NCBI RefSeq assembly: GCF_024436435.1
Contig: NZ_JAFMZP010000009.1
Location: forward strand, 62,001-126,000
Reading direction: 5' to 3'
Source of the DNA: Desertivirga xinjiangensis
Lineage (GTDB): Bacteria; Bacteroidota; Bacteroidia; Sphingobacteriales; Sphingobacteriaceae
DNA: 64,000 nucleotides
A program made the translations under genes and the position numbers. Position 1 is the first letter of the stretch. Each line of letters begins with the position of its first letter. Below the pieces are notes generated by a model, which ran no database searches, was not told where the DNA came from, and saw only the letters and a program-made list of their open reading frames with translations. Positions 43,504 to 47,002 of the stretch are shown here, piece after piece.

Positions 43504-45282
43504 ATGAACCCATTTAGTGAACTGGGTATCCGTCATGATATTGTTAATGCCATATCTGATCTGGGATTTTCCAATCCCACGCCAATCCAGGAACAAGCAA
43601 TCCCGGTATTACTTTCAGGCAGCAACGATTTTGTCGGATTAGCTCAAACAGGAACCGGTAAGACGGCAGCATTTGGCCTGCCTTTATTAGAATTACTGGA
43701 CTTTGAAGAAAATTATCCACAGGCACTGGTTTTGTGCCCAACCCGTGAACTTTGTTTACAGATTACTAACGATCTGAACAATTATTCAAAAAATGTTAAA
43801 AATGTAAATGTAGTTGCCGTTTATGGAGGCGCCAGTATTTCTGACCAGTTGCGTCAGATAAAACGTGGTGTCCAGATTGTAGTGGCAACTCCAGGACGTA
43901 TGCTTGATATTATCAATCGTAAAGCAATTGATTTTTCTCAGGTACAGTACGTGGTTTTAGATGAAGCGGATGAAATGCTTAATATGGGCTTTCAGGAAGA
44001 CATCGACCAGATTTTATCAACAACGCCGGATGATAAAAAAACATGGTTGTTTTCTGCAACAATGCCTGCAGAGGTGCGCAGAATTGCGAAAAAGTACATG
44101 GACAATCCCCATGAACTTACCATGGGCTCCAAAAATACGGGAAACGCCAACATCGATCACGAGTATTACGTAGTTCGTGCCCGGGACAAGTATGCTGCGT
44201 TTAAACGTATTGTTGATTTTAACCCTGAAATTTTTGGTATTGTATTCTGTCGGACCAAAATAGAAACTCAGGAAATTGCTGAGTCCTTAATTAAGGACGG
44301 GTACAATGCTGATTCTTTGCATGGTGACCTTTCTCAGCAGCAACGTGACAAGGTAATGAAACGTTACCGTGAGCGAAGTTTGCAACTACTTATTGCTACT
44401 GATGTTGCAGCCAGGGGTATCGATGTTAATGATGTTACTCATGTAATTAACTACTCATTGCCTGACGAAATTGAGAACTATACGCACCGGAGTGGTCGTA
44501 CAGCTCGTGCGGGCAAGACCGGGGTTTCCATTTCCATCATCAATTCAAAAGAACTTGGAAAGATCAGGCAGATTGAACGTGTAATCGGAAAGCAATTTGT
44601 AAAAACGGAAATCCCTAATGGGTTTGATGTATGTGAGAAGCAGTTATTTGCGCTGGTTCATAAAGTGCATAACGTTGAAGTAAACGAGGAACAGATCGAG
44701 CAGTATATTCCGCGTATTATGGACGAATTCAAAGATCTTAGCAAAGAAGATATAATCAAGCGCTTCGCTTCACTTGAATTTAACCGCTTCCTGGAGTATT
44801 ACAAAAATGCACCAGACCTAAATGCTCCTGCACACGAAGATCGCGGCGAACGTTCAGATCGCTTTGGACGGGGAGGAAGCAGAGGTGACTATACTCGCTT
44901 GTTTGTAAATCTTGGATCTGTTGATGAGTTCACAAGAGGAGATATGCTTGGATTTATCTGTAACACAGCTAAAATCAGCGGAAAGTCCATTGGGAAGATA
45001 GATTTAAAAGGTGTTTATACCTTCTTTGAAGTTGAAAATGCAGTTGCCGAAACTGTACAGCAAAACTTTAAAGGCGCTGAATATAATGGTCGTAGTGTAC
45101 GCATTGAAGTTGCTGGTGATCGTGATAGCGGTGGAAGCCGCGGCGGTCGGGAAAGAAGCGGCGGCAGACGCGAAGGCGGCTATGGCGGCGGTCGTAGCGG
45201 TGGCGGATTTCGTGATTACTCAGGTAAAAAAAGAGAAGATCGTAGTGGCGAAAGAAGCGGTGAACGCAGAAGACGTTTCTAA
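43504..45282 (+). CDS. deaD: DEAD-box RNA helicase (CsdA/DeaD-like) with Arg/Gly-rich tail
   Basis: A 592-residue ATP-dependent RNA helicase for ribosome assembly and mRNA remodelling, often cold-linked. Motifs in order: Q motif (NPTPIQEQAIP), motif I AQTGTGKT, PTRELCLQ, TPGRMLD, VLDEADEML, SAT, HGDLSQQQRD, TDVAARGIDV and HRSGRTARAGK. A DbpA-type RNA-binding domain lies about 455-535 (YTRLFVNLGSVDEFTRGDML), and the last 50 residues are rich in R, G, S and E. Symbol given by family resemblance. Confidence 0.93.
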   Translation: MNPFSELGIRHDIVNAISDLGFSNPTPIQEQAIPVLLSGSNDFVGLAQTGTGKTAAFGLPLLELLDFEENYPQALVLCPTRELCLQITNDLNNYSKNVKNVNVVAVYGGASISDQLRQIKRGVQIVVATPGRMLDIINRKAIDFSQVQYVVLDEADEMLNMGFQEDIDQILSTTPDDKKTWLFSATMPAEVRRIAKKYMDNPHELTMGSKNTGNANIDHEYYVVRARDKYAAFKRIVDFNPEIFGIVFCRTKIETQEIAESLIKDGYNADSLHGDLSQQQRDKVMKRYRERSLQLLIATDVAARGIDVNDVTHVINYSLPDEIENYTHRSGRTARAGKTGVSISIINSKELGKIRQIERVIGKQFVKTEIPNGFDVCEKQLFALVHKVHNVEVNEEQIEQYIPRIMDEFKDLSKEDIIKRFASLEFNRFLEYYKNAPDLNAPAHEDRGERSDRFGRGGSRGDYTRLFVNLGSVDEFTRGDMLGFICNTAKISGKSIGKIDLKGVYTFFEVENAVAETVQQNFKGAEYNGRSVRIEVAGDRDSGGSRGGRERSGGRREGGYGGGRSGGGFRDYSGKKREDRSGERSGERRRRF

Positions 45283-45285
45283 TAT

Positions 45286-45325
45286 TTAACAAAAAATGCC
45301 CGGAATTCCGGGCATTTTTTGTTAA
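45286..45325. terminator. Perfect 40-nt palindromic terminator
   Basis: TTAACAAAAAATGCCCGGAA and its exact complement form one palindrome with A/T flanks. It serves the helicase on the plus strand and the small gene ending at 45322 on the minus strand, whose stop codon lies inside it. Confidence 0.93.
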
Positions 45326-45627
45326 TCAAGATAAACCCTTCGAGCATCTTTGTTAATGTAATATTTGCGTTGGTGTTTATCGATGTAAACCGTTTCTCCG
45401 TTCGGGCCCTTAACATCTTTAAGTGATTTATCTTTAACCTTAGCCGCGGCTTTTGCACCCACTTCTCCAGTCTTTTTACCGGCTTTTTTTACAGCTTTAC
45501 CTGTAGCCTTGCCAGCTTGTTTAACCTCTTGTCCAAAGGTGGTGGTATCCTTCTTTTCCTGGCTATATGATTCGTTTGCCACTCCCAGCAGCAAAGTAAC
45601 AATTAATGTGCCTATTATTTTTCTCAT
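45322..45627 (-). CDS. Small exported Lys/Ala-rich protein
   Basis: A 101-residue product with a signal peptide (about 1-22, ending SYS). The middle (about 33-70) is a Lys/Ala/Gly-rich, likely helical segment (KATGKAVKKAGKKTGEVGAK). The C-terminal 29 residues hold a motif GPNGETVYIDKHQRKYYINK then RRVYLD. The same motif ends the neighbouring gene 12 bp upstream on the same strand. I do not recognise the family; the motif may be a small beta module. The two genes are likely one operon. Confidence 0.75.
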   Translation of the reverse strand: MRKIIGTLIVTLLLGVANESYSQEKKDTTTFGQEVKQAGKATGKAVKKAGKKTGEVGAKAAAKVKDKSLKDVKGPNGETVYIDKHQRKYYINKDARRVYLD

Positions 45628-45639
45628 CGACGATAGATG

Positions 45640-45924
45640 TTATACTGTTTCAAGATAAACTCTTTTACCTGTTTCGTTTTCATAAAACTGACGATCGTAC
45701 ATGTCGAGATAGACAGGCTCGCCATGGGGGCCCTCAACATGGTGCATAATTCGCGCTTTTAACCGGTGGCTATAATCCATTATGCGGTTTCCAAGTCTCC
45801 TTGCAGAGTTTGTGACGCCATCAGTTAATCTTGATCCGTCTTTTCTTTTATAAGTAGTTATTATGGCTGTTGCCGCAGCTGCTCCGGCAACAATGCCTAA
45901 AATGGCCATATTTTTCATTTCCAT
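45640..45924 (-). CDS. Small membrane-anchored protein sharing a C-terminal motif with its neighbour
   Basis: A 94-residue product starting MEMKNMAILGIVAGAAAATA, with one N-terminal membrane helix (about 5-24), a basic stretch (YKRKDGS, SARRLGNRIMDYSHRLKARI) and a C-terminal GPHGEPVYLDMYDRQFYENE then KRVYLETV. The start is the ATG at 45924; an upstream TTG at 45951 only lengthens the frame. The C-terminal motif matches the gene at 45322-45627. Unknown function; the helix and positive middle suggest membrane or envelope location. Confidence 0.72.
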   Translation of the reverse strand: MEMKNMAILGIVAGAAAATAIITTYKRKDGSRLTDGVTNSARRLGNRIMDYSHRLKARIMHHVEGPHGEPVYLDMYDRQFYENETGKRVYLETV

Positions 45925-45997: not shown

Positions 45998-47002
45998 TTA
46001 AGATAATTGTTCTGAAAGCAGTTTCATCTCTATATGGGGAGAATGCTTTTCATATAACACTGCATATACTGCCCTGCAAATAGGCATGTTCACTTTGTAG
46101 GTCTTATTAATCTGATGCAGGCCATTCGCTGCATAATAACCCTCAGCGATCATGTTCATTTCCAGTTGTGCTGATTTTACAGTATAGCCTTTGCCGATCA
46201 TGTTGCCAAACATTCTGTTTCTGCTGAACTGCGAATAGGCCGTAACCAGTAGATCGCCCAGATATGCAGATTCTTTTATATCTCTGTCTATAGGATGAAC
46301 AGCGTCAACAAAACGTTTTATTTCTCTTATGGCATTCGAAATAAGTACTGATTGGAAGTTGTCTCCATAACCAACACCATGGCATATGCCGCTCGCAACC
46401 GCATAAATATTTTTAAGTACTGCAGCATATTCAGTTCCATAGATATCATCTGATATATTGGTCTTAATATATCTTGTGTTCAGAAGTCCGGCGAAACAAG
46501 ATGCAAGCTCGTTGCTCGGAGATGCAATAGTAAGATAAGAAAGTTTTTCAAGCGCCACTTCTTCTGCATGGCAAGGCCCGCTCATTACAACGATATCTTC
46601 CAGTGGAATATGATACTTGTAATGCATAAATTCCCCTATGATCAGGTTTTCATCGGGAACAAAACCTTTGATGGCCGATATTATTTTTTTTCCTTTAAGA
46701 GCATCAGGATGAATAGTCCCGAGAGCATCTTTCAAAAATGCAGCGGGAATGTTCAATAAAATTATTTCAGCCTTGGAAACAATTTCCGCGAGGTCATGGC
46801 TAATATTCTGCGGCAAGACACTGATTTCAACTGAGCTCAAGTAGTTCGGATTATGGCGATATTTTCGGATGTGATCTATTGCTTCTGTATTTCGCATCCA
46901 CCAGTATATCTCTTTGGGGGTGCGGTTATCCGCCAGCATTTTAATATTTGCTGTAGCCCAGCTTCCTCCTCCAATAACTGCTATTTTAGCCACTCTATCC
47001 AT
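45998..47002 (-). CDS. gpsA: Glycerol-3-phosphate dehydrogenase (NAD(P)+)
   Basis: Reduces dihydroxyacetone phosphate to sn-glycerol 3-phosphate for phospholipid synthesis. The 334-residue protein has an N-terminal Rossmann loop IAVIGGGSWATA (about 7-18), the mid motif VMSGPCHAEEVA, and the catalytic-lysine segment YGTEYAAVLKNIYAVASGIC. The usual GxGxWGT is slightly changed to GGGSWAT. The start is the ATG at 47002, not the TTG at 47026. Confidence 0.92.
   Translation of the reverse strand: MDRVAKIAVIGGGSWATANIKMLADNRTPKEIYWWMRNTEAIDHIRKYRHNPNYLSSVEISVLPQNISHDLAEIVSKAEIILLNIPAAFLKDALGTIHPDALKGKKIISAIKGFVPDENLIIGEFMHYKYHIPLEDIVVMSGPCHAEEVALEKLSYLTIASPSNELASCFAGLLNTRYIKTNISDDIYGTEYAAVLKNIYAVASGICHGVGYGDNFQSVLISNAIREIKRFVDAVHPIDRDIKESAYLGDLLVTAYSQFSRNRMFGNMIGKGYTVKSAQLEMNMIAEGYYAANGLHQINKTYKVNMPICRAVYAVLYEKHSPHIEMKLLSEQLS

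What the first reader, a model, noticed from the sequence alone, without database searches (positions are those of the whole stretch)
45322..45924. Adjacent small genes share a novel C-terminal motif
Both products end in GP(N/H)GE-x-VY(I/L)D-x3-R-x-(F/Y)Y-x-N-x4-RVYL, while their N termini differ (signal peptide and Lys/Ala helix against membrane helix and basic linker). The motif has the spacing of a short beta-sheet module and could be an undescribed envelope domain fixed by tandem duplication.
Basis: seen in the sequence. Interest (0 to 1): 0.55.

Follow-up and report, generated by a model that had tools for sequence, protein, structure and literature searches.

The report
Paired small envelope proteins sharing module
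Two neighbouring small bacterial genes, born of an old duplication, make an apparently exported and an apparently membrane-anchored protein that end in the same small folded module, a distant relative of a module named from algal viruses, with its electric charge reversed in one of the two.

Summary
P0001 (A; 45322-45627, -) and P0002 (B; 45640-45924, -) share the C-terminal motif, and the similarity runs ungapped over 66 residues, into the helix before it. It is not confined to this pair: a motif model matches 103 of 201 genomes of the host's family. AlphaFold2 gives both a helix followed by a four-strand meander (pLDDT 72-90 over the module).

The module is not wholly new. Profile comparison, bridging proteins and fold search link it to Pfam PF08789 (PBCV_basic_adap), although both window proteins miss that family's cut-off and lack its GG turn. 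PF08789 proteins of another bacterial family have A's plan: signal-peptide-like start, Lys/Ala stalk, terminal module.

A and B are old paralogues (reciprocally monophyletic) in a slot between gpsA and a DEAD-box helicase gene. A alone usually fills the slot; the adjacent pair is a minority state. The module is neutral or basic in 17 of 17 A and acidic in 11 of 11 B.

Best reading: gpsA-linked envelope adaptors, partner unknown. New variant of a known kind.

The parts
45322..45627 (-). Gene A (P0001, 101 aa): signal-peptide-like N terminus, Lys/Ala helix, C-terminal module
45322..45408 (-). Module of A (residues 74-101, plus stop codon)
   Evidence: HMM match
45640..45924 (-). Gene B (P0002, 94 aa; start may be the ATG at 45918): hydrophobic N-terminal segment, helix, C-terminal module
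45640..45732 (-). Module of B (residues 65-94, plus stop codon)
   Evidence: HMM match
45998..47002 (-). Upstream neighbour gpsA (NAD-dependent glycerol-3-phosphate dehydrogenase), 73 nt before B
43504..45282 (+). Convergent neighbour: DEAD-box RNA helicase with DbpA RNA-binding domain
45288..45323 (.). Perfect 36-bp palindrome between the convergent genes, a possible two-way terminator
   Evidence: not listed by the terminator scan

Best explanation
The two genes are old paralogues that end in a divergent form of the PBCV_basic_adap-type beta-meander module. A is exported to the periplasm; its cationic Lys/Ala helix is a stalk and its basic module a docking cap. B carries the same cap, charge-reversed, on a helix held to the inner membrane by its N-terminal segment. 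Both lie behind gpsA, which makes the glycerol-3-phosphate used for phospholipids, so the likeliest role is an envelope adaptor whose dosage follows membrane building. Shown by computation: A-B homology, the conserved slot, the charge split, the predicted fold, the profile link to PF08789. Inferred: export, anchoring, co-transcription with gpsA. Conjecture: the adaptor role and an anionic envelope partner for A.
For: A-B: 66 ungapped residues; family profiles, probability 98.8 over 91 columns. A (17) and B (11) are each one side of a branch, support 100/99. Slot: gpsA lies upstream of A in 38 of 48 A loci of named genomes, gap 26-75 nt in 34 of the 37 measured; gpsA is the next gene upstream of B in 9 of 11 B genomes. 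PF08789: hhalign of 17 A modules against 17 modules found with PF08789: probability 97.2, score 41.25, maximum 22.3 in 200 column shuffles. The protein of genome G259 is found by both models: motif HMM E 4.6e-9, PF08789 21.8 bits, over the cut-off. Named PBCV basic adaptor proteins are among the top 50 viral fold matches for both models. 15 of 15 printed f26 PF08789 proteins have the plan of A. Charge split.
Against: No window protein reaches the PF08789 cut-off. Single-sequence scores against a PF08789-derived HMM are weak (P0001 E 0.35) and 4 shuffled decoys have E below 1. The B link is weaker (probability 65.9, score 20.16 against a shuffled maximum of 16.8). No fold match has E<=0.001, and the B model was built mostly on A rows. 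A without B and B without A both occur; no B-type module was seen by a pattern search in the flanks of the 48 named A loci. PF08789 loci with flanks of 1.5 kb show no gpsA, so the gpsA link is not general to the module. Export and topology were judged by eye and hydropathy only; flanking charges of B do not fix its orientation. No functional data were found.
Confidence: 0.6

Rival explanations
1. A and B are a charge-complementary pair: the acidic cap of B on the inner membrane binds the basic cap of A in the periplasm, making a tether.
For: Charges are opposite in 17 of 17 A and 11 of 11 B; the genes are adjacent in 5 genomes.
Against: Either gene occurs without the other; the orientation of B is undecided, and a cytoplasmic cap could not meet A.
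Confidence: 0.12
2. The module is a bacterial WW-type domain that binds a proline-rich or other peptide.
For: Weak Pfam WW matches in 5 of 27 modules, best E 0.059; one WW_1 match at 0.028; small meander with an aromatic pair.
Against: 13.1 bits against a cut-off of 26.9; no Trp in either window module; the PF08789 link is stronger. WW chains were not listed, which excludes nothing.
Confidence: 0.06
3. Similarity to PF08789 is convergence of a short, low-complexity turn-rich hairpin, and the module is an independent invention in this lineage.
For: Window modules miss the PF08789 cut-off; only about 27 columns compared; weak single-sequence scores.
Against: 0 of 200 shuffles as high for A and for B; a protein found by both models; shared protein plan; fold matches.
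Confidence: 0.18
4. A is a hydrophilin or LEA-like stress protein whose Lys/Ala helix does the work; the module is only a stabilising end cap.
For: Lys/Ala/Gly-rich helix of variable length; long Lys/Ala stretches in f26 relatives.
Against: Within A the module columns include the invariant positions P75, G77 and Y81, while helix length varies widely, which points to the module as the constrained part.
Confidence: 0.2

Closest known systems
Pfam PF08789 PBCV_basic_adap (PBCV-specific basic adaptor domain)
   Same: Ungapped register from NG through VY and YY to the final Y(I/L), C-terminal position, short; viral members turn up in the fold search; PF08789 proteins of f26 share signal-peptide-like start and Lys/Ala stalk.
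   Different: GG turn replaced by IDKHQR or LDMYDR; scores below the Pfam cut-off; B module acidic.
Pfam PF12732 YtxH-like
   Same: P0002 residues 8-58: hydrophobic segment plus helix, 15.5 bits.
   Different: Cut-off is 37.5 bits; only 2 of 11 B proteins match at E<=1; the match does not reach the module.
Pfam PF00397 WW
   Same: Aromatic pair in a small beta meander; weak matches.
   Different: No Trp in the window modules, far below the cut-off.

Membership tests
PF08789 PBCV_basic_adap | Pfam gathering score of 20.4 bits | tested here: not met
   No PF08789 match in either full window protein at E<=10; 3 of 27 modules match, best E 0.012; none in the own genome at E<=0.1.
PF08789 PBCV_basic_adap | GG turn before the YY strand, as in the bacterial members matched here | tested here: not met
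   IDKHQR in A and LDMYDR in B against xGPxGG-like turns.
PF08789 PBCV_basic_adap | Profile-level similarity in register | tested here: met
   A: probability 97.2; B: 65.9; 0 of 200 shuffles as high in each.
PF08789 PBCV_basic_adap | Fold of the viral members | tested here: inconclusive
   Named members at ranks 2, 8, 26 and 5, Foldseek probability 0.85-0.94, no E<=0.001.
PF08789 PBCV_basic_adap | Basic module (from the family's name) | tested here: inconclusive
   P0001 +2, P0002 -3.
PF12732 YtxH | Pfam gathering score of 37.5 bits | tested here: not met
   15.5 bits for P0002.
PF00397 WW | Pfam gathering score of 26.9 bits | tested here: not met
   13.1 bits for the A module.
PF00397 WW | WW fold | tested here: inconclusive
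   Not listed, which cannot exclude it.
LEA / hydrophilin | Protects proteins or membranes in desiccation or salt stress (recalled) | not testable with these tools
   Only composition was seen.

The most novel reading that the evidence does not exclude
An old duplication split a basic adaptor module into two charge-opposite caps, one on a periplasmic stalk and one on the inner membrane; expressed with gpsA, they form a tether that couples phospholipid supply to the spacing or attachment of the cell envelope in Sphingobacteriaceae.
Probability: 0.1. Interest if true: 0.65.

Novelty: new variant of a known kind. Interest (0 to 1): 0.35.

Why it matters
It ties a small module, present in about half of the sampled genomes of one bacterial family, to a module named from chlorella viruses for which my literature searches found no tested function. 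The constant gpsA neighbourhood, the strict charge split between paralogues and the small size make the pair a simple test case for what this kind of module binds.

Tried and rejected
WW membership: below cut-off. YtxH membership of B: below cut-off. NCBIfam: 3 weak matches for A, none for B. PHROGs: one weak match of unknown function for A, none for B. Solved structures by sequence: best E 0.066, to a 13-residue stretch. PDB fold search: best E 0.98. Second structural look: best 6hcz_A at Z 5.7, rmsd 2.7, 57 aligned, within the range the tool calls common; neither a WW nor a PF08789 chain is named in its 13 rows. Phage records: no match to one family-A relative. Promoter scan: 8 sites against a shuffled mean of 5.5, none between gpsA and B. 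Orientation of B from flanking charge: N flank 0 to +2, C flank -1 to +3, undecided. Recent duplication or wholesale gene conversion: against it stand the tree (but 16 of 25 inner branches are unresolved) and within-genome module identities of 25-39% in 4 of 7 genomes, 50-57% in 3.

Literature searches: PBCV-specific basic adaptor (12), WW domain/bacteria/Bacteroidetes (13, listing only), PF08789 (30), PBCV_basic_adap (33), basic adaptor domain (34), Chlorella virus/A278L/basic adaptor (54), YtxH/general stress/Bacteroidetes (71), PBCV-1/basic adaptor/2-cysteine (72). One paper with the domain, PMC3281028; I saw one passage of it. The library lacks most subscription journals.

Rows left out before counts: A3 holds 10 of the 11 B modules (L036 left out by me). 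The PF08789-like set was picked by a pattern that demands GG, so L085, L086, L104, L107 and L110 dropped out and identical modules were merged to 23; for I removed the rows found with the motif model (L072, L074, L075, L077, L080, L082), leaving 17. The charge count of 23 does include those 6. Model A4 uses 36 of the 45 proteins.

Full report
What is there. On the minus strand lie B (P0002, 45640-45924) and, 12 nt further on, A (P0001, 45322-45627). Upstream on the same strand, 73 nt before B, is gpsA (Pfam NAD_Gly3P_dh N and C domains, E 6.1e-30 and 1.4e-45); downstream and convergent is a DEAD-box helicase gene with a DbpA RNA-binding domain (names also). A perfect 36-bp palindrome lies between the convergent genes (45288-45323).

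Is the motif real? Yes. A and B align over 66 residues without gaps (29%, E 2e-12), including the helix before the motif. In the own genome P0001 finds only itself and P0002. Profiles of the two families align with probability 98.8 over 91 columns. Coding selection: dN 0.24-0.30; dS saturated in 3 of 4 comparisons, 1.7 in one.

How widespread? Of 37 host-family genomes among the relatives searched, my reading of the rows and frames gives A in 17 and an intact B in 11, both in 7. Left out of the 11 are G010 (degenerate module), G031 (B-like start without module) and G023 (stop codon). A module HMM matches 103 of 201 genomes of the family, 14 of 25 genera, at E<=1e-4; 13 of the 103 show two matches, and in 6 of these the two lie next to each other. 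Across the phylum it matches 16 of 395 genomes at E<=0.01, 7 of them outside the host's family. A single-protein scan of named genomes gave 48 loci, most labelled Mucilaginibacter or Pedobacter. I place the host in or near Sphingobacteriaceae because contigs of two unnamed relatives have the lengths of named Arcticibacter and Mucilaginibacter contigs.

What is the module? The A model has a helix 33-65 and strands 67-73, 79-82, 88-91 and 97-99; block means over residues 71-101 are 82-90. The B model has a helix 35-55 and strands 58-64, 70-73, 79-82 and 88-90; block means over residues 61-94 are 72-88. Whole-chain confidence is low (mean pLDDT 63.7 and 62.0), so only the module is usable. The B alignment held nine family-A rows, so the B model is not independent.

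Relation to PF08789. The module HMM also found proteins that join the A/B start (GPNGE) to a GG-YYINKNG core (L072, L074, L075, L080, L082). Of six such proteins given to Pfam (these five and L077, some as fragments), five match PF08789 at E 0.00062-0.18, none over the cut-off; L080 does not match. In the genome search the G259 protein (L072/L099) is over the cut-off at 21.8 bits, and its motif-HMM E is 4.6e-9. PF08789 hits 24 of 395 phylum genomes at E<=0.01, 22 over the cut-off, none in the host's family in that sample; but among 60 relatives it hits 4, two over the cut-off, one of them (G005) in the host's family. Of the 24, 16 are in one family, f26; 15 of their proteins were printed and all 15 have a signal-peptide-like start, a Lys/Ala-rich stretch and the module at or near the C terminus. 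At least two hits (L107, L110) do not look like the module. With modules from the PF08789 searches alone, hhalign gives A 97.2 (score 41.25; 200 column shuffles: mean 8.9, maximum 22.3) and B 65.9 (score 20.16; mean 7.7, maximum 16.8). Single-sequence HMM scores overlap with shuffled decoys: P0001 E 0.35, best decoy 0.53. Foldseek on viral models lists named PBCV basic adaptor proteins at ranks 2, 8 and 26 for A and 5 for B, none with E<=0.001. I judge common descent likely (about 0.8), but the window proteins fail the family's own test and are not filed as members. PMC3281028 (one passage) lists the chlorella-virus kinases A278L and A282L, annotated with this domain, in a table of DNA-associated virion proteins; that says nothing certain about function here.

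History. On 28 rows A and B each form one side of a branch (100/99); 16 of 25 inner branches are unresolved. B directly upstream of A is seen in G000, G001, G003, G022 and G027; in G021 and G026 A lies elsewhere; G002, G012, G013 and G034 have B without A. gpsA is the next listed gene upstream of B in 9 of 11 B genomes, not in G003 or G013. Among 48 A loci of named genomes gpsA lies upstream in 38 and the DEAD-box gene is in the flanks in 36; the gpsA-A gap is 26-75 nt in 34 of 37 measured. A pattern search of those 48 loci found 45 A proteins and no B. So the slot is old and usually holds A; the adjacent pair is kept in a minority. gpsA was not found in the 1.5-kb flanks of L083-L111, the PF08789-search loci.

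Charge. K+R-D-E from the motif to the C terminus is 0 to +8 in 17 of 17 A and -3 to -5 in 11 of 11 B; in 23 PF08789-like modules, six of them found with the motif model and counted over a slightly different stretch, it is +2 to +8. The parts before the motif are neutral or basic in both families (0 to +15).

How it may work. A: export, cationic stalk, basic cap docking on an anionic envelope surface. B: the same cap, acidic, near the inner membrane. The gpsA neighbourhood suggests, but does not show, a link to phospholipid supply. Direct A-B contact is possible but cannot be obligatory. The partner is unknown.

Verdict. 'Envelope module, tandem duplication' is largely right; 'undescribed' is half right: it is an uncatalogued, charge-split branch related to PF08789.

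Noticed in passing
L090-L109 (f26 genomes): PF08789 modules sit at the end of proteins with long Lys/Ala-rich stretches, reminiscent of the helical spacer of TolA (recalled resemblance).
   Followed up: partly
L164 4608-4880 (-), L165 2369-2641 (-), L043: B-like genes in decay: degenerate module in G010, no recognisable module in G031, a stop codon in G023.
   Followed up: partly
L088: A PF08789 module ends a 328-aa frame whose middle looks like a non-specific DNA/RNA endonuclease (by recognition, not searched).
   Followed up: no
L136: A family-A gene in a MAG labelled Chitinophagaceae, without gpsA or the DEAD-box gene in its 3-kb flanks.
   Followed up: no
window 45288-45323: Perfect 36-bp palindrome between convergent genes, overlapping two bases of A's stop codon; the terminator scan did not list it.
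   Followed up: yes
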